DNA from: Pseudomonadota bacterium
GTDB taxonomy: Bacteria > Pseudomonadota > Alphaproteobacteria > Acetobacterales > Acetobacteraceae
Length of the DNA: 9,182 bases
Assembly (NCBI GenBank): GCA_021805485.1
Contig: JAJZFF010000499.1
Location: 1-9,182 of the forward strand
Direction of reading: 5' to 3'
This document shows, piece by piece, positions 2,161 through 9,182 of the stretch. The notes under the pieces are model-generated. The model did not search any database and was not told the DNA's origin. It worked only from the letters and a program-made list of their open reading frames with translations. Positions within the stretch are counted from its first letter, which is position 1. The number at the start of each line of letters is the position of its first letter. A program made the translations under genes and the position numbers.

Positions 2161-4062
2161 ATGACTTCCAAACCCGACGCCCCCGACGAGCCGCCGGCAT
2201 TCGCCCGGTCCTTCGAGGCCGCGCTGATCGGCAAGTCGCTCGACGGCATCATCACGTCGTGGAGCGAAGGGGCAGAGCATCTGTTCGGCTACCGGGCGGA
2301 CGAAATCATCGGGCGCTCGATCCATTTGCTGGCGGCGCCCGGGCGCGAGGCGGAAATGGACGAGCTTCTGGCCCGGACAGCAAAGGGCGAGACCTTCGAC
2401 CAGTTCGAGACCATCCGCCGCCGCAAGAACGGCTCGCTCGTCCGCGTGCTGCTCACGCTCAACCCGGTGCATGATACGGACGGCCGCATCGTCGGCATTT
2501 CCAAGATCGCGCGGGATATCACCGAGCATCGCAGCACTGAGGCCAGGCTCCGCTCGATCCTCGACACCGCGCCGGATGCCGTTATCGTCATCGATCCGCG
2601 CGGCACCATGAGGTCGTTCAGCCAGGCGGCCGAACGGATGTTCGGCTACGCGGCCGAGGAAGTCGTCGGCCGCAACGTGTCGATGCTGATGGCCGAACCG
2701 CATACCTCGGCTCATGACCTCTATCTTGCCCGTTATCTGGAAACCGGCGAGCGGCGCATCATCGGCATCGGCCGCGAGGTAGAGGCCCGCCGGGCCGACG
2801 GCTCGACCTTTCCGGTCGAACTCGCCGTCGGCGAGGTCGACCTGCCCGAGATGAGACTGTTCACCGGCTTCATCCGCGACGTCAGCAAGCGCAAGCGTCT
2901 CGAGAACGATCTCGCGCAGGCGCAGAAAATGGAGGCCGTGGGCCAACTGACCGGCGGACTCGCGCATGATTTCAACAATCTGCTGGCAGTGATTTCCGGA
3001 AACCTCGAAATGCTGGAGGGTCATGTCAACGGCGGCGAGGCCGCGGAACTCCTTGCCGAGGCCCGGCTCGCAACCGAACGTGGCGCCGAACTGGCGGCAA
3101 GGCTGCTTGCCTTCGGCCGGCGGCAAACCCTCCGGCCGCTCGCGATCGACGTGAACGACCTCGTCGGGAAGATGGCGCCGCTGTTCCGGCGCACGCTCGG
3201 CTCGCCGGTGATGATCGAGACAAGGCTTGCAGCCGACCTGCCGCGCACCATGGCGGATCCGGGACAGATCGAGACGGCGCTGCTCAACCTCGCCCTCAAT
3301 GCGCGGGACGCCATGCCCAAGGGCGGCCGTCTCGTGATCGAGACCGGCCTGCTCCATGTCGATGCCGACTATGCGGCACAACAGGCCGAGACCCTGCCGG
3401 GCAATTATGTAGTCCTGGCGGTGACGGACAGCGGGATCGGCATGAGCGCCGAAACGCGGGCACATGCCTTCGAGCCTTTCTTCACCACGAAGGACGTTGG
3501 TGAGGGATCGGGGCTCGGACTGTCGATGGTCTACGGCTTCGTCAAACAGAGTGGCGGCCATGTGCAGATCTATTCCGAACCCGGGCTGGGCACCACGGTC
3601 CGCTTGTTCCTGCCGGCGATCCGGGCCGACATGGTTGCCACCGCCGCCGACGAGGTGGCTCCTGTCCCGCCGCCGCACCGCGGGATGGTCCTCGTGGTCG
3701 AGGACGATCCCGCGGTGCGGCGTGTCGCGGAGCGCCGACTTGCCCGTCTCGGATATTCCACGATCAACGCGGCGACAGGCGCTGCCGGCATCGCAGCGCT
3801 CCAATCCCATCCTGAGGTCGCGGTGCTCTTCACCGATGTCGTGCTGGCCGGTGGCATGTCAGGCCTCGATCTCGCCATCGCAGCCCGGGTGGCGCGCCCC
3901 GAACTGCCGGTGCTGTTCACTTCCGGCTATGGCGATCCCGTCGTGCTCAGGGGCCGCGCGCTACCCGCCGGGGCGATCTGGCTGCAAAAACCCTATGCCG
4001 AGACGGCCCTTGCAAACGCACTTGCAACCTTGCTCCGGCCGGTTCGCGACGAGGGCGTCTGA
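2161..4062 (+). CDS. Soluble hybrid sensor histidine kinase with FixL-type heme PAS domain (PAS-PAS-HisKA-HATPase-REC; hFixL-like)
   Basis: This 633-residue protein starts at ATG 2161, with AGGA 7 bases upstream. No transmembrane segment is visible, so it is cytosolic. PAS1 covers about residues 13-124. PAS2 (about 128-250) reads RSILDTAPDAVIVID, then AHDLYLARY and RIIGIGR. Aligned by eye to Bradyrhizobium FixL it keeps the heme-ligating His (H185 = H200), R191 (= R206) and the O2-contacting Arg (R205 = R220); FixL H214 is Arg199. The H-box is GGLAHDFNNLL with phospho-acceptor H269. The ATPase has N-box LNLALNARDAM, DSGIGMS, FEPFFTTK and GSGLGLS. The C-terminal receiver has E514/D515/D516, phospho-Asp D559 and K610. 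All catalytic residues are intact. The H-box is of the HDFNN type, not the HELNQPL of classical FixL. It ends 15 bases before the convergent OmpR-type regulator, a plausible partner. Heme binding is inferred from residues only. Confidence 0.92.
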   Translation: MTSKPDAPDEPPAFARSFEAALIGKSLDGIITSWSEGAEHLFGYRADEIIGRSIHLLAAPGREAEMDELLARTAKGETFDQFETIRRRKNGSLVRVLLTLNPVHDTDGRIVGISKIARDITEHRSTEARLRSILDTAPDAVIVIDPRGTMRSFSQAAERMFGYAAEEVVGRNVSMLMAEPHTSAHDLYLARYLETGERRIIGIGREVEARRADGSTFPVELAVGEVDLPEMRLFTGFIRDVSKRKRLENDLAQAQKMEAVGQLTGGLAHDFNNLLAVISGNLEMLEGHVNGGEAAELLAEARLATERGAELAARLLAFGRRQTLRPLAIDVNDLVGKMAPLFRRTLGSPVMIETRLAADLPRTMADPGQIETALLNLALNARDAMPKGGRLVIETGLLHVDADYAAQQAETLPGNYVVLAVTDSGIGMSAETRAHAFEPFFTTKDVGEGSGLGLSMVYGFVKQSGGHVQIYSEPGLGTTVRLFLPAIRADMVATAADEVAPVPPPHRGMVLVVEDDPAVRRVAERRLARLGYSTINAATGAAGIAALQSHPEVAVLFTDVVLAGGMSGLDLAIAARVARPELPVLFTSGYGDPVVLRGRALPAGAIWLQKPYAETALANALATLLRPVRDEGV

Positions 4063-4077
4063 CCCGCCCCGCGCGAT

Positions 4078-4800
4078 TCACCGTTCCAGCTTGCCCGCGA
4101 AGACATAGCCCGCGCCACGCACCGTCTTGATCAGTTGCGGTTGTCCGGGGTCCTGCTCGATCTTGCGGCGGAGCCGCATGACCTGGGTATCGACCAGCCG
4201 GTCGAACGCCTCAAAATCCCGCCCTTTCAGCAGGTTCAGCAACTGGTCGCGGTCCAGGACCCGCCCCGCGTGGCGCAGGAAGACGGCAAGAAGTTCGAAC
4301 TCCGCGGTGGTCAGCGGTATATCCACCCCATCCCGCCCGCGCAGGGTCCGGCCGAGCGGGTCGAGGGCATGGCCGTCGAAACGGATCTCGGTTTCCGGCG
4401 GGTCCGGCTCGGCGGGCTCCGGTGCGCTGCGTCCCGTCATCCGCCGCTTGAGGGCGCGGATCCGCGCAAGGACCTCGCGCAGATGGAAGGGTTTGGCGAT
4501 ATAGTCGTCGGCCCCGGCTTCCAGTCCCGCCACCCGGTCGATGACATCGTCCTTGCCGGTCAGCATGATGATCGGGATATCAGAGCGCGCCCGGATGGCT
4601 CGGGCGATCGCCAGCCCATCCTCCCCGCCGAGCATGAGATCGAGCAGCACCAGCGTGACGTCACCAGCGACGAGAGCCGCATGGATGCTGACCTCGCTGT
4701 CGGCTTCCTTGGTTCCGTATCCCTCACCGGCAAGATAGCGACGCAGCATCGTGCGGATCTGGGGGTCGTCGTCAACGATCAGAATTATCCCCGCGTCCAC
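4078..4800 (-). CDS. OmpR/PhoB-family response regulator (possible FxkR-like partner)
   Basis: This 240-residue protein starts at GTG 4800. No other start lies between it and the in-frame stop at 4843-4845, and the ribosome site (TTAGGG) is weak. The receiver domain (about 1-120) is complete: D10/D11/D12 acidic pocket, phospho-acceptor D54 in LVLLDLML, T81 and K103 in AKPF. A proline- and glutamate-rich linker (about 122-138) leads to a winged-helix Trans_reg_C domain (about 139-237) with PLTTAEFELLAVFLRHAGRVLDRDQLL and the closing IKTVRGAGYVF. It should be a phosphorylation-controlled, DNA-binding cytosolic regulator that binds direct repeats. It converges on the hybrid kinase (15-base gap) and diverges from the FixK-like gene. 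In Rhizobium etli an OmpR-type regulator, FxkR, connects hFixL to fixK; the same composition here makes that role plausible. Orthology to FxkR is not shown. Confidence 0.93.
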   Translation of the reverse strand: MDAGIILIVDDDPQIRTMLRRYLAGEGYGTKEADSEVSIHAALVAGDVTLVLLDLMLGGEDGLAIARAIRARSDIPIIMLTGKDDVIDRVAGLEAGADDYIAKPFHLREVLARIRALKRRMTGRSAPEPAEPDPPETEIRFDGHALDPLGRTLRGRDGVDIPLTTAEFELLAVFLRHAGRVLDRDQLLNLLKGRDFEAFDRLVDTQVMRLRRKIEQDPGQPQLIKTVRGAGYVFAGKLER

Positions 4801-5706: not shown

Positions 5707-6130
5707 ACGGAACAATGCAGACCATCCCATGCAGCCGACAATATCGATGCTGGCGATAACCCGGAACCGGGCATGGTTGCATCCGGCATCGCATTGCAAG
5801 GCGAAATGAGAGATCCGCATTTCGACAGTCATGAATTTCGGGTTGTCCCGGTGTTATGATTTAATTTTGATCATTTCTGTATAGCATATAAAACTTTCCT
5901 AACATTTTAGCTTGAATGGATAACTGCTTAATACACAAGAAACAGATACGCCGTGGTTGGGTCCATATATTGTGCCCCTTGAAGCGTCATGGGCGGAATA
6001 ACCTCTGACCGAACGTTTTACTATTTTAATTATTTCAGAATTTTTGAAGAATTTCTCTATTATTAAAATTTTTTCATTGACCTGTCATTTTTAAGGTTGT
6101 ATATGATGAATAAATCAACTGGAGGTTGAT
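5707..6130. other. Non-coding region upstream of the CtrA-like gene, AT-rich in its right part
   Basis: This stretch of 424 bases has no convincing gene. The left part (to about 5840) is GC-balanced and holds two small dyads: CCCGG-AA-CCGGG at 5760-5771, and CGAAATG (5802-5808) with CATTTCG (5818-5824) around a 9-base loop. Neither has a T-run, so they are poor intrinsic terminators for the fixK-like gene. From about 5850 to 6130 the DNA turns AT-rich; by my count 6001-6060 has 16 G/C of 60 and 6061-6120 has 13 of 60. I searched TTAA sites for the CtrA pattern TTAA-N7-TTAA and found none. Confidence 0.75.
6077..6105 (+). promoter_or_regulatory. Candidate sigma70-type promoter of the CtrA-like gene
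   Basis: TTGACC (6077-6082) is followed after exactly 17 bases by TATATG (6100-6105), with an A/T-rich stretch just upstream that could act as an UP element. The predicted transcript would begin about 15-20 bases before the start codon, leaving room for the GGAGG at 6121-6125. A small dyad, TGAC-CT-GTCA (6078-6087), overlaps the -35 and could be an operator. The promoter is predicted from consensus only. Confidence 0.5.
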
Positions 6131-6883
6131 ATGAGACTTCTCATTTTTGGCAAAATGTTCGACCGGCACGACAGCCTGAACAGCTTCATCAAGTCCAAGC
6201 TGGTCGTCATCGACGAGACTGTGGATGTCGAGGAAGCCATCGATCTCACGCGTCATTACGAATACGAATCTGTCGTCATTCGTGTTTTCGATGCCAACAA
6301 GATCGAGTTCGACCTGATCCGTCGTCTGCGCAAATCCGGATTTCAGGCACCGATCGTTGCAATCGCAAACGCGCTCGCCGAGCCGACCCGGCTGCATATC
6401 CTTGAAGCTGGGGTCGACGACCTCATCGTGGGCGCCCCGTCATATGAGGAAACGTTCCTGCGCATCCAGAATCATATACGCAGGAACCGGGGCTTCCAGG
6501 ACTCTTCGCTTTCCGTTGGCAATATCGAGGTCAACATGAATGCGAAGAAGGTCTTCGTCGGCGCCCGCGAAGTCGCCGTCACGAAGAAGGAGTATCAGAT
6601 CATCGAACTCCTCGCGCTGCGCAAGGGCTGCGTTCTCAGCAAGGAAGCGATCCTCGATCATCTCTACGGCGGCCTCGACGAACCGAACGCCAAGATCATC
6701 GACGTATTCATCTGCAAGATCCGCAAGAAACTGCTTGCCGCAGACGGCCAGGACGTGCTCGTCACCAACTGGGGACGCGGCTATATGATGGCCGACCGGC
6801 GCCCCCAGAACATGGTTCAGACGGCGACCGCGCCGGGCATCCAAGCCAGGATCAAGACGACTGCAAGCCTTGCAGTCGCTTGA
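6131..6883 (+). CDS. CtrA-like winged-helix regulator with degenerate (phosphorylation-null) receiver domain
   Basis: This 250-residue protein starts at ATG 6131, with GGAGG 5 bases upstream. The C-terminal half (about 125-227) is a CtrA-type Trans_reg_C domain: TKKEYQIIELLALRKG, HLYGGLDEPNAKIIDVFICK and WGRGYMM are near word-for-word CtrA. Aligned from memory with Caulobacter CtrA the proteins run collinear without gaps to at least residue 160, yet the receiver has lost every active residue: E7/D8/D9 are G/K/M, phospho-acceptor D51 is Arg, S79 is Ala and K101 is Gly. The fold is probably kept (YEYESVVI, LEAGVDDLI), so it should be a phosphorylation-independent DNA-binding protein, perhaps competing at CtrA sites or binding others. 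The tail after the wing is longer than in CtrA and ends SLAVA. Sampled lines have 45-60% G+C, against about 68% in the kinase, hinting at different ancestry. No kinase is adjacent. Confidence 0.9.
   Translation: MRLLIFGKMFDRHDSLNSFIKSKLVVIDETVDVEEAIDLTRHYEYESVVIRVFDANKIEFDLIRRLRKSGFQAPIVAIANALAEPTRLHILEAGVDDLIVGAPSYEETFLRIQNHIRRNRGFQDSSLSVGNIEVNMNAKKVFVGAREVAVTKKEYQIIELLALRKGCVLSKEAILDHLYGGLDEPNAKIIDVFICKIRKKLLAADGQDVLVTNWGRGYMMADRRPQNMVQTATAPGIQARIKTTASLAVA
6858..6878. repeat. 21-base palindrome spanning the last codons of the CtrA-like gene
   Basis: Perfect 10-base arms CGACTGCAAG (6858-6867) and CTTGCAGTCG (6869-6878) flank a single C at 6868. As RNA it would fold as an 8-pair stem with a 5-base loop. 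It ends 2 bases before the TGA stop (6881-6883) and encodes the terminal residues T-A-S-L-A-V. No T-run follows, so it is not a textbook intrinsic terminator. It could instead protect the mRNA 3' end, promote factor-dependent termination, or bind a protein. Confidence 0.6.
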
Positions 6884-7004: not shown

Positions 7005-7286
7005 TTACCAGGTCTGATGATGGTGATGGTGGTGATGATGGTGGTGATGATGATGCTCATCGGCCTGCTGGATCCGGGCGCCACCCTGCTCCGCGCGCTG
7101 GCGGGCGAGCGCCGCATCGTGCTCGCGAAGCATGACGGAGGCATTGGGGACCGGGCCGAGAAGTTCAGCATAGGATGCCGCTTCAAAGCGGGGCGCCGGG
7201 GGAAGCGACGCGGCGGAACTCATCACCGGGGCGGCGATAGCGGCCCCGACCACTGCGCCGAGAATACAGATTGTGGTCTTTTCCAT
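7005..7286 (-). CDS. Small exported protein with a 13-histidine C-terminal tract
   Basis: This 93-residue protein starts at ATG 7286, with AGGAGA 6 bases upstream (minus strand). A signal peptide (MEKTTICILGAVVGAAIAAPVMSSAA, cleavage probably after residue 25-27) is followed by a short mature part containing ASYAELLGPVPNASVMLREHDAAL, a helical R/A/E/Q-rich stretch, then E, 13 consecutive His and QTW at the end. The His codons mix CAT and CAC, so the run is not one simple repeat unit. From memory, small exported alphaproteobacterial proteins with a SYA(E/D)LL-P-PNA motif and a His-rich end exist without an assigned function. A periplasmic metal-binding or metal-buffering role (Ni, Zn, Cu) follows from the His tract but is inference. 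The gene converges on the CtrA-like gene across 121 bases in which I see no clear terminator. Confidence 0.8.
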   Translation of the reverse strand: MEKTTICILGAVVGAAIAAPVMSSAASLPPAPRFEAASYAELLGPVPNASVMLREHDAALARQRAEQGGARIQQADEHHHHHHHHHHHHHQTW

Positions 7287-7839: not shown

Positions 7840-8010
7840 GATTATCATAATTCATTTTTTGCTTTTTTATAATATTATTTTAAATTGGCTTGTTCATTCA
7901 AAAATACTTTTGAACAATTATAGAATAACGATAAAATATTACAAATACCGTTTTATTCAATTTGATGATCCGATCATTAAATATTTTATGATCATATTTT
8001 TGACACAAAT
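7840..8010. promoter_or_regulatory. AT-rich island with dyads upstream of the bcsB-like gene
   Basis: By my count 7861-7920 has 11 G/C of 60 and 7921-7980 has 14 of 60. Two inverted repeats lie inside: TTGTTCA (7890-7896) with TGAACAA (7911-7917), 14-base spacer; and GATCAT (7972-7977) with ATGATC (7988-7993), 10-base spacer. TATGAT at 7987-7992 resembles a -10 and overlaps the second dyad, and TTGACA occurs at 7999-8004 without a well-spaced -10. Such DNA suits binding by AT-preferring silencers (MucR/Ros-type in alphaproteobacteria). The promoter placement is uncertain. Confidence 0.45.
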
Positions 8011-8051
8011 TGGCGACGATTGCGCCATATCCGCTCCTTGTCTTGGCAGCC

Positions 8052-9182
8052 ATGGACGGACATTCAAAAGACCCACAGTCTCGACACATGCCCTGCCCAG
8101 ATCGGCCCGGTCATGGGCTGCCCGCCCGCTTCCAGCCCGCACGCTGGGCTGCCGGACTGGCGCTGGCGCTGCCACTCTGCTGCCAACCCGCTCAGGCGCG
8201 CCTCGAACACCGCCAGAGCGAGGTCCGGTCCGGGGCAGGCATTCCCGCGACGGCGATTTCCCATCCGCTGGCCTGGTATGACCGCGATCGGGCCCCGATC
8301 GTCCTGAAGGGACGCTCGGCTTCGGGCGACATCACGTTCCAGGTGGCCGATCATCGGGAGGTTTCGGCCGCCGAGCTGCATCTTCTCGGCACCAATTCCG
8401 CATCGCTGATCGGTGGCGCCTCGCAATTGCTGGTGCTGCTGAACGGCTCGCCGCTGAAGCAGATCCCGCTCGACGGCTCGTCGCCGACGATCGACCGGAC
8501 CATCGGCATTCCACCCGGCGATCTGCGGGATGGAACGAACCAGCTCACCCTGTCGGTCACGCAAAAGGCGGCGCAGGGCTGCGAGGCGTTCGATGACCCC
8601 GCGCTGTGGACACGGATTTCGCCGAAGTCGCAACTGTCGATGAGCTACCGGCGGGACTCGGTTCCCCTCACCCTCGCCAGCCTGAAGTCGAGCTTCATGT
8701 CGTGGCAGCCGGATACGTCCCACATATTCGTCCTCTACGATCCCGCGCTCGCGCGCGCGCCGGAACCGATCATGGCGATCGCGCGGTCGGTGGCGCGGGC
8801 CGACGCGATGCGCGCGGTGTCCTTCGTCGCGCGGCCGCTCGACCGGGTCGGCAAGGCCGTGGCGCAGACATCGGCCGCGACCGTGATCATCCTCAAGCTG
8901 GAGAACGGAGCGGCCGCCGGCAGCGGGCTCGACGCCGCGACGCTGTCGATCGCCCGCAATCCGGTCGGTGGGGTCGTGATGACCATTGCCGCGGAAACGC
9001 CCCGCGCCCTTACCGGCGCGGCCCGGCTGATCGGGCGGCCCGGAACGGTCTGGCCGAACGAACAGAGCGCCGTCATCCGCGTTCCGGCCGCCACCGGCCA
9101 CACGCAGAGCCCGCACGCGCCGGCAGCCAGCCCGACCGATATCAGCTTCCGCGCCACCGGCCTGCCGACACAGACCGAACAC
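8052..9182 (+). CDS. bcsB: BcsB-like cellulose synthase regulatory subunit, N-terminal half, cut by window edge
   Basis: 377 codons stay open to the window edge. Start choice is uncertain: ATG 8052 or in-frame ATG 8088 (residue 13), neither with a clear ribosome site; 8088 gives a more usual signal peptide. The hydrophobic segment WAAGLALALPLCC (from about residue 32) and QPAQA (to residue 49) form an export signal. The mature part resembles PF03170: GDITFQVADHREVSAAELHL (from about residue 92), LLVLLNGSPLKQIPL, then C177 followed by AFDDPALWTRISPKSQL. BcsB is a periplasmic, inner-membrane-anchored partner of the cellulose synthase BcsA that guides the glucan with carbohydrate-binding and flavodoxin-like domains. 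Family length is about 750-800 residues, so roughly half is missing here. Normally bcsA lies just upstream; here about 765 non-coding bases precede it. A BcsB-like protein of another polysaccharide system remains possible. Confidence 0.82.
   Translation, partial: MDGHSKDPQSRHMPCPDRPGHGLPARFQPARWAAGLALALPLCCQPAQARLEHRQSEVRSGAGIPATAISHPLAWYDRDRAPIVLKGRSASGDITFQVADHREVSAAELHLLGTNSASLIGGASQLLVLLNGSPLKQIPLDGSSPTIDRTIGIPPGDLRDGTNQLTLSVTQKAAQGCEAFDDPALWTRISPKSQLSMSYRRDSVPLTLASLKSSFMSWQPDTSHIFVLYDPALARAPEPIMAIARSVARADAMRAVSFVARPLDRVGKAVAQTSAATVIILKLENGAAAGSGLDAATLSIARNPVGGVVMTIAAETPRALTGAARLIGRPGTVWPNEQSAVIRVPAATGHTQSPHAPAASPTDISFRATGLPTQTEH

What the first reader, a model, noticed from the sequence alone, without database searches (positions are those of the whole stretch)
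6131..6883. CtrA paralogue with a completely erased phosphorylation pocket
The DNA-binding half is strongly CtrA-like, and the receiver aligns with CtrA without gaps, yet all active positions changed (E7/D8/D9 to G/K/M, D51 to R, S79 to A, K101 to G). Loss at every site with the fold and reading frame kept points to a selected pseudo-receiver, not decay. D51R puts a positive charge where phosphate would sit. Such a protein could act as a constitutive competitor or a partner of CtrA, controlling cell cycle, motility or surface polysaccharide.
Basis: partly seen in the sequence, partly recalled or inferred. Interest (0 to 1): 0.8.

Follow-up and report, generated by a model that had tools for sequence, protein, structure and literature searches.

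The report
Phosphorylation-free CtrA in acidophilic bacteria
The gene looks like a second copy of a master cell-cycle regulator that, in a group of acid-loving bacteria, has lost the site where its switch-on phosphate would attach, in genomes where the protein that delivers that phosphate was not found either, yet it is kept intact by selection.

Summary
In detail: ORF 6131-6883 is a CtrA-type regulator with G7/K8/M9, R51, A79, G101. The interpretation needs reframing. The empty pocket is not peculiar to this copy: 120 of the 120 listed best homologues (of 552) lack D51 (117 R, 2 H, 1 S), yet keep dimer-face charges and a CtrA DNA-binding domain. Of 13 genomes in the Acidiphilium genus, 10 carry only pocketless CtrA, 3 carry none found; no D51-type CtrA was found. 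The window gene is a fast-diverged duplicate of that core pocketless CtrA (one genome carries both), beside a cellulose-synthase gene, under purifying selection (dN/dS 0.11). The phosphotransferase ChpT was not found in 15 of 15 R/H/S genomes, even with a family-specific profile. Another branch (Gluconobacter, Acetobacter, Acidomonas) also lacks ChpT and carries D51E. Family-wide: D51, 77 ChpT+/17 ChpT-; non-D51, 1/33, but few independent events. Best reading: CtrA was released from its phosphorelay and works as a constitutive dimer controlled by its amount; the window copy is a local specialisation. Binding sites and activity are untested or weakly supported. Aspartate-less receivers are known; this clade-wide CtrA case was not seen in the paper searches made.

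The parts
6131..6883 (+). CtrA-type response regulator gene with aspartate-less receiver (second, diverged copy)
6131..6490 (+). pseudo-receiver domain (aa 1-120)
   Evidence: AlphaFold2 (beta-alpha)5 order; Pfam Response_reg 17.6 bits, below cut-off
6149..6157 (+). codons 7-9, G-K-M in place of E-D-D
6281..6283 (+). codon 51, Arg in place of the phospho-acceptor Asp
6365..6367 (+). codon 79, Ala in place of Ser
6431..6433 (+). codon 101, Gly in place of Lys
6509..6796 (+). winged-helix DNA-binding domain (aa 127-222); in the pocketless group the recognition helix shares 13 of 16 majority residues with D51 CtrA
6077..6103 (+). sigma-70-like promoter TTGACC-17-TATA, present at the same place in the G161 orthologue
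   Evidence: (1 match, 0.01 expected in shuffles), alignment
8010..9182 (+). bcsB (cellulose synthase subunit), runs out of the window; in G161 bcsB is followed by a BcsA-like synthase with PilZ
   Evidence: L290
4978..5706 (+). Crp/Fnr-type regulator upstream (best NCBIfam model FixK, 143.4 bits, cut-off 300)

Best explanation
In the common line of Acidiphilium and Acidocella, CtrA was cut loose from its phosphorelay: ChpT is not found and the receiver has lost its acceptor Asp and most or all other phosphorylation residues, while dimer-face charges and the CtrA DNA-binding domain stayed (shown by sequence). The protein therefore most likely binds CtrA-type sites as a constitutive dimer, and its activity is set by how much of it is made or degraded rather than by phosphate (inferred). 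In the line leading to the window and G161 this gene was duplicated; the second copy diverged fast, sits near a cellulose-synthase gene behind its own conserved promoter, and is under purifying selection (shown). Its likely job is a specialised output, such as surface polysaccharide or attachment, sharing or competing for the core copy's sites, perhaps as a heterodimer (inferred).
For: Acceptor lost in 120 of 120 listed homologues: 117 R, 2 H, 1 S. Dimer-face charges kept in the 120: R87 120, D96 119, D97 120, E107 120, K/R111 120, R117 and R118 120 (that these form the OmpR-family interface is recalled). No D51-type CtrA found in 13 genus genomes or in G001-G004. ChpT not found in 15 of 15 R/H/S genomes with a profile that finds 13 of 13 positive controls at 104-202 bits; PF10090 agrees for the 13 genus genomes. 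Pocketless clade 13 of 13 rows together (100/100) inside the family's CtrA (100/100); the window copy and its G161 orthologue join the G161 core copy (97/83), branch 1.04 against 0. dN/dS 0.11. GcrA in 42 of 42 genomes; FliM in 15 of 15 R/H/S genomes and 18 of 18 searched. NCBIfam's best model is CtrA for the window, core and Acidocella-type copies.
Against: Target sites are weakly supported. Spacing 7 makes 6 of 16 (G161) and 11 of 24 (G159) of TTAA-N5..9-TTAA matches, but 2 of 12 in the D51 genome G111; and the pattern as a whole is rarer than its reversed control (one strand: 16 against 132 in G161, 24 against 123 in G159, 12 against 29 in G111). Only 1 of 18 fliM upstream regions has an exact site, 3 more with one mismatch, with crude gene starts. 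In the window the only match with at most one mismatch is at 7869-7883, before bcsB (0.24 expected; 43 of 200 shuffles have one), none before the regulator. The helices of the presumed dimer face have diverged apart from the charges: majority residues shared with D51 CtrA 2 of 10 in alpha4, 5 of 15 in alpha5. The core copy's neighbours differ from the fliI-ctrA locus, so orthology rests on the tree and on the absence of another CtrA; the stem is very long (5.28). 17 D51 genomes also stay ChpT-negative. CckA could not be resolved. Constitutive activity is untested. The window's own genome is not held, so its core copy is unseen.
Confidence: 0.65

Rival explanations
1. Ligand-gated pseudo-receiver: the basic pocket (R51, and R56 in most relatives) binds an anionic signal, for example c-di-GMP, and that replaces phosphate as the switch.
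For: R51 in 131 and R56 in 130 of the 137 rows of the pocketless group (the 17 non-P rows of that group were chosen by residue 51). The pseudo-receiver of Caulobacter ShkA binds c-di-GMP (PMC7010744, passages). The window copy lies near a cellulose synthase gene, and its G161 counterpart has a PilZ domain in the next synthase gene.
Against: In ShkA the residues cluster on the beta5-alpha5 surface, not in the pocket. The window copy has N56 and its G161 orthologue Y56.
Confidence: 0.2
2. Competitor or heterodimer partner of the core CtrA (the first reader's idea, but the partner is another pocketless CtrA, not a canonical one).
For: G161 carries both copies; dimer-face charges are kept throughout the group; the DNA-binding domains of window copy and G161 core copy are identical at 75 of 96 positions.
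Against: No canonical CtrA found in 13 genus genomes. The core copy in the window's own organism was not observed.
Confidence: 0.25
3. Decaying copy on its way to a pseudogene.
For: Long branch since the duplication (1.04).
Against: dN/dS 0.11, full-length ORF and conserved promoter region in two lineages; 96 of 96 DNA-binding positions identical to the G161 orthologue, although low synonymous divergence there (0.09) weakens that last point.
Confidence: 0.03
4. Artefact of detection: ChpT is present but too diverged, or another phosphotransferase feeds CtrA (suggested by Brilli et al. 2010 for genomes with CckA and CtrA but no chpT; PMC2877005, passages).
For: The family profile found ChpT in 3 of 20 D51 genomes missed by Pfam. 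At most 47 first-look candidates per genome were scored in that search.
Against: 0 of 15 R/H/S and 0 of 18 E51 genomes gained a ChpT (best weak matches 29.2 and 32.9 bits, in ORFs of about 400 aa or more, against 104 or more for the controls); and the R/H/S proteins have no acceptor Asp to take a phosphate.
Confidence: 0.07

Closest known systems
CtrA (alphaproteobacterial cell-cycle response regulator, NCBIfam NF045991)
   Same: Best-scoring family; same domain order and ungapped receiver; group recognition helix 13 of 16 majority residues; falls inside the family's CtrA clade.
   Different: No acceptor Asp, acidic triad, Ser79 or Lys101; 191 bits against a cut-off of 350; ChpT not found in related genomes; not beside fliI.
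Aspartate-less receiver / pseudo-receiver response regulators (examples ChxR, HP1043, RitR, GlnR; PMC4395418 passages, PMC12632262 outline and section 18)
   Same: OmpR-type output, phospho-Asp replaced, dimer-face charges retained, possibly active without phosphate.
   Different: Arg, Lys and His together make 4% of substitutions in such domains; here a whole branch of a master regulator is converted and its relay protein is not found.
CtrA(D51E) of Caulobacter (laboratory allele; ctrA(D51E)delta3omega is called stable and active in PMC5189948, passages)
   Same: Same position changed; the E51 branch found here carries that substitution naturally.
   Different: The window clade has the opposite charge (R) and an emptied pocket.

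Membership tests
CtrA | Best match among response-regulator families | tested here: met
   NF045991 190.7 bits versus 91 for the next model
CtrA | Passes NCBI's curated CtrA cut-off (350 bits) | tested here: not met
   190.7 bits; core copy 201.3; Acidocella-type copy 221.5; E51 protein 318.6; D51 protein 370.1
CtrA | Phospho-acceptor Asp51 and catalytic pocket | tested here: not met
   G7 K8 M9 R51 A79 G101
CtrA | Fed by CckA-ChpT | tested here: not met
   ChpT not found in 15 of 15 R/H/S genomes (window's own genome not held); CckA unresolved
CtrA | Groups with CtrA of the same bacterial family in a rooted tree | tested here: met
   51 family CtrAs 100/100 against 32 outgroup CtrAs, pocketless clade inside
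CtrA | Recognises TTAA-N7-TTAA | tested here: inconclusive
   excess of spacing 7 in two genomes, but the pattern is rarer than its reversed control
Aspartate-less receiver (pseudo-receiver) | Receiver fold kept | tested here: met
Aspartate-less receiver (pseudo-receiver) | Phospho-Asp replaced | tested here: met
   R51
Aspartate-less receiver (pseudo-receiver) | Activity independent of phosphorylation | not testable with these tools
   needs biochemistry

The most novel reading that the evidence does not exclude
Within one bacterial family CtrA has left the CckA-ChpT relay and evolved in two opposite ways: a natural phosphomimetic D51E in acetic acid bacteria, and an Arg-filled, emptied pocket in the acidophiles, the latter then duplicated into a ligand-gated (possibly c-di-GMP) regulator of cellulose. 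That would make CtrA a relay-free master regulator whose timing comes from synthesis, degradation or a small molecule.
Probability: 0.3. Interest if true: 0.85.

Novelty: new variant of a known kind. Interest (0 to 1): 0.66.

Why it matters
CtrA control by phosphorylation is the textbook core of the alphaproteobacterial cell cycle. Two surveys (PMC2877005 and PMC8116508, passages seen) noted that chpT is often missing in Rhodospirillales while ctrA stays; the first suggested a substitute phosphotransferase, the second lower selection pressure or missed homologues. The receiver changes described here offer another explanation for part of these genomes: the acceptor itself is gone or fixed as Glu. 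It makes a direct test possible: can a cell run CtrA-controlled functions with no phosphorelay, and what times CtrA then?

Tried and rejected
Sought a canonical CtrA next to the pocketless one: none in G001-G004 or the 13 genus genomes. SciP (DUF1153; that this is SciP is recalled): 0 of 42 genomes, D51 genomes included, so uninformative. CckA by NF046026: 0 of 42 genomes over cut-off, D51 genomes included, so inconclusive. FliM upstream sites: 1 exact and 3 one-mismatch of 18; for 17 of 18 the expected start motif was not found, so the anchor was the opening of the frame. CtrA boxes in the window: one 1-mismatch match, 0.24 expected. Rfam: nothing over threshold. Plasmid records: 16, each covering at most 4% of the window. 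Independent-pairs test of D51 loss against ChpT loss: 5 pairs on supported branches, ChpT differing in about 1 of them, always the same way; no significance possible. C-terminal degron: 62 of 99 D51 rows end in AA, R rows end variously (GT 4, VA 3, IA 3, AG 2, GA 2), no conclusion.

Dropped rows and limits: 22 of 150 family genomes left out of the table (18 without a match at 1e-30, 2 whose match was not listed, 2 partial; 8 of the 22 are ChpT+). The 137-row pocketless group is 120 listed proteins plus 17 rows chosen by residue 51 (3 of them identical to listed proteins), so statements on how common the change is rest on the 120 alone. Only the best 120 of 552 hits were listed. The ChpT recheck covered all 20 D51 ChpT-negative genomes but 20 of the 33 non-D51 negatives in the sample.

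Changed on recheck: the former claim '137 of 137 lack D51' was partly circular and is now 120 of 120; the E51 branch is no longer called a sister; confidence lowered from 0.68 to 0.65 and the detection-artefact rival raised from 0.05 to 0.07 because of the reversed-pattern control, the diverged alpha4/alpha5 and the candidate cap.

Full report

It is clade-wide. All 120 listed best homologues (of 552) lack D51: 117 R, 2 H, 1 S. With the window and 16 genome loci that were picked by residue 51, the group used for composition has 137 rows: 131 R, 4 H, 2 S; position 56 is R in 130; E7 is still present in 86. Against 76 D51 proteins from ChpT-bearing genomes the pocket stretches are replaced (101-104: 0 of 4 majority residues shared; beta4: 0 of 5), the recognition helix is kept (13 of 16), the DNA-binding domain shares 57 of 96, and alpha4 and alpha5 share only 2 of 10 and 5 of 15. 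Within those helices, however, the charges that I recall as the OmpR-family dimer face stay: in the 120 homologues R87 120, D96 119, D97 120, E107 120, K/R111 120, R117 and R118 120. Position 103 (K+2) is Phe in 73 of 76 D51 proteins and Leu in 97 of 137 pocketless ones; Bourret et al. 2025 report that Ala, Ile, Leu or Val there shifts CheY toward active conformations (PMC12632262, section 18 read). The window copy itself has Pro103, so this does not apply to it.

Sole CtrA, then a duplicate. In G001-G004 (an Acidiphilium MAG, an Acidocella MAG and two MAGs titled Proteobacteria) the next-best match after this gene is a generic OmpR-type regulator at 23-27% identity. In 13 genomes of the Acidiphilium genus, 10 have a pocketless CtrA (8 R51, 2 H51), 3 have only generic OmpR-type matches, and none showed a D51 CtrA; only G161 has two copies, 93% and 68% identical to the window protein. 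On the careful tree, rooted with 32 CtrAs of other alphaproteobacteria and built without the pocket columns, the pocketless rows are one clade (13 of 13, 100/100) on a very long stem (5.28) inside the family's CtrA, and the window copy plus its G161 orthologue branch with G161's own core copy (97/83) (in the 145-row quick tree the same four rows, with G166, form a supported set). So the pocket was lost first and the gene duplicated later. In four Acidiphilium-type loci compared the core copy lies near a moaE-cluster gene (4 of 4) and in two of them beside radical-SAM, lytB and dxs genes; D51 ctrA lies beside a fliI-cluster gene in 3 of 3 loci and E51 ctrA in 2 of 3 (Pfam run on one member of each cluster). 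The long stem and the changed neighbours leave room for an ancient paralogue that replaced the original ctrA.

Selection and surroundings. Against the G161 orthologue dN/dS is 0.11 overall, 0.10 in the receiver and 0.05 in the DNA-binding part; five neighbours give 0.11-0.24. The upstream region holds a conserved stretch with a TTGACC-17-TATA promoter in a 32% GC segment. Upstream lies a Crp/Fnr-type regulator; downstream, after a small His-rich ORF on the other strand, bcsB (in G161 followed by a BcsA-like synthase with PilZ).

The relay. ChpT (PF10090) is in 83 of 150 sampled family genomes and over cut-off in 0 of 13 Acidiphilium-genus genomes. A profile of 15 family ChpTs found 13 of 13 Pfam-positive controls outside the profile (104-202 bits), 0 of 15 R/H/S genomes (best 29.2 bits), 0 of 18 E51 genomes (best 32.9 bits) and 3 of 20 D51 genomes that Pfam had missed (at most 47 candidates per genome scored). 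Fisher p is 1.3e-15 on the table before recheck, but the tree offers 5 independent pairs on supported branches, with ChpT differing in about 1, so the counts reflect few events. The exception, G142, has a second CtrA-like gene with Asp at the site but no acidic triad.

A second route. Gluconobacter (2), Acetobacter (1) and Acidomonas (1) genomes carry E at position 51. Among 30 E51 rows D9 stays in 25, S/T79 in 30, K101 in 22 (R in 6), but D8 in only 3. In the careful tree the 13 E51 rows sampled form one clade (99/93) whose sisters G080, G141 and G065 are D51 without ChpT, which suggests that ChpT went first and D51E followed. Against a simple history: in the wider tree E51 needs at least 5 changes, and D51 rows (G135, G055, G069; ChpT-negative) nest among E51 rows. 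In Caulobacter a D51E allele is used as an active form (PMC5189948, passages).

How it most likely works. Shown: no acceptor, no ChpT found, conserved dimer-face charges and DNA-binding domain, purifying selection, GcrA kept (42 of 42), FliM kept (15 of 15 R/H/S genomes, 18 of 18 searched). Inferred: constitutive dimers bind CtrA-type sites, and control lies in synthesis or degradation. Site evidence is weak: of TTAA-N5..9-TTAA matches, spacing 7 makes 17 of 40 in two Acidiphilium genomes (8 if spacings were equal) and 2 of 12 in a D51 genome, but the pattern as a whole is much rarer than its reversed control. One exact site lies before fliM in G159, and others lie near genes that read like chemoreceptors (my reading, no family search); one is inside a long ORF. 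The window copy's role in cellulose is a neighbourhood inference only.

What is known. Aspartate-less receivers are an established class (PMC4395418, passages; PMC12632262, outline and section 18); Arg, Lys and His together make 4% of substitutions at the acceptor. Loss of chpT in this order was noted by PMC2877005 (passages) and PMC8116508 (passages: ctrA, gcrA and ccrM in 72-82%, chpT, cckA and divL in 27-36% of genomes); the passages seen make no link to the CtrA receiver. Searches for CtrA with Acetobacteraceae, Acetobacter+ChpT, Rhodospirillales+CckA+ChpT, Acidiphilium, D51E/Gluconobacter, aspartate-less receiver, cell-cycle evolution terms, acetic acid bacteria and pseudo-receiver listed no paper whose title or abstract start describes this; most listed papers were not opened, and the library is open-access only, so absence in print is not proven.

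Noticed in passing
L007, L011, L049, L073 and other family loci: Natural D51E CtrA in Gluconobacter, Acetobacter and Acidomonas, again without ChpT; possibly more interesting than the window gene itself.
   Followed up: partly
window 6491-6883 against L290: Synonymous divergence between the window gene and its G161 orthologue drops from 0.63 (receiver) to 0.09 (DNA-binding half), as if the 3' half had recently been exchanged by recombination.
   Followed up: no
window 7005-7286 (-): Small 93-aa ORF with a signal-like start and a run of about 13 histidines near its end, between the regulator and bcsB.
   Followed up: no
G161, G158, G159, G160, G166, G167, G105, G001, G033, G162, G164: T3SS_ATPase_C domain (FliI type) found in 0 of these 11 genomes although FliM is present in all 11; in Acidocella-type genomes it is found in 4 of 4. 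An unusual or missing flagellar export ATPase.
   Followed up: partly
window 2161-4800: PAS-PAS-HisKA-HATPase-REC hybrid kinase with CckA-like core (NF046020 314.9 bits, cut-off 1000) next to an OmpR-type regulator with normal receiver score on the other strand.
   Followed up: no
G163, G165, G168: Three Acidiphilium-genus genomes with only generic OmpR-type matches, no CtrA found; incomplete assembly not excluded.
   Followed up: no
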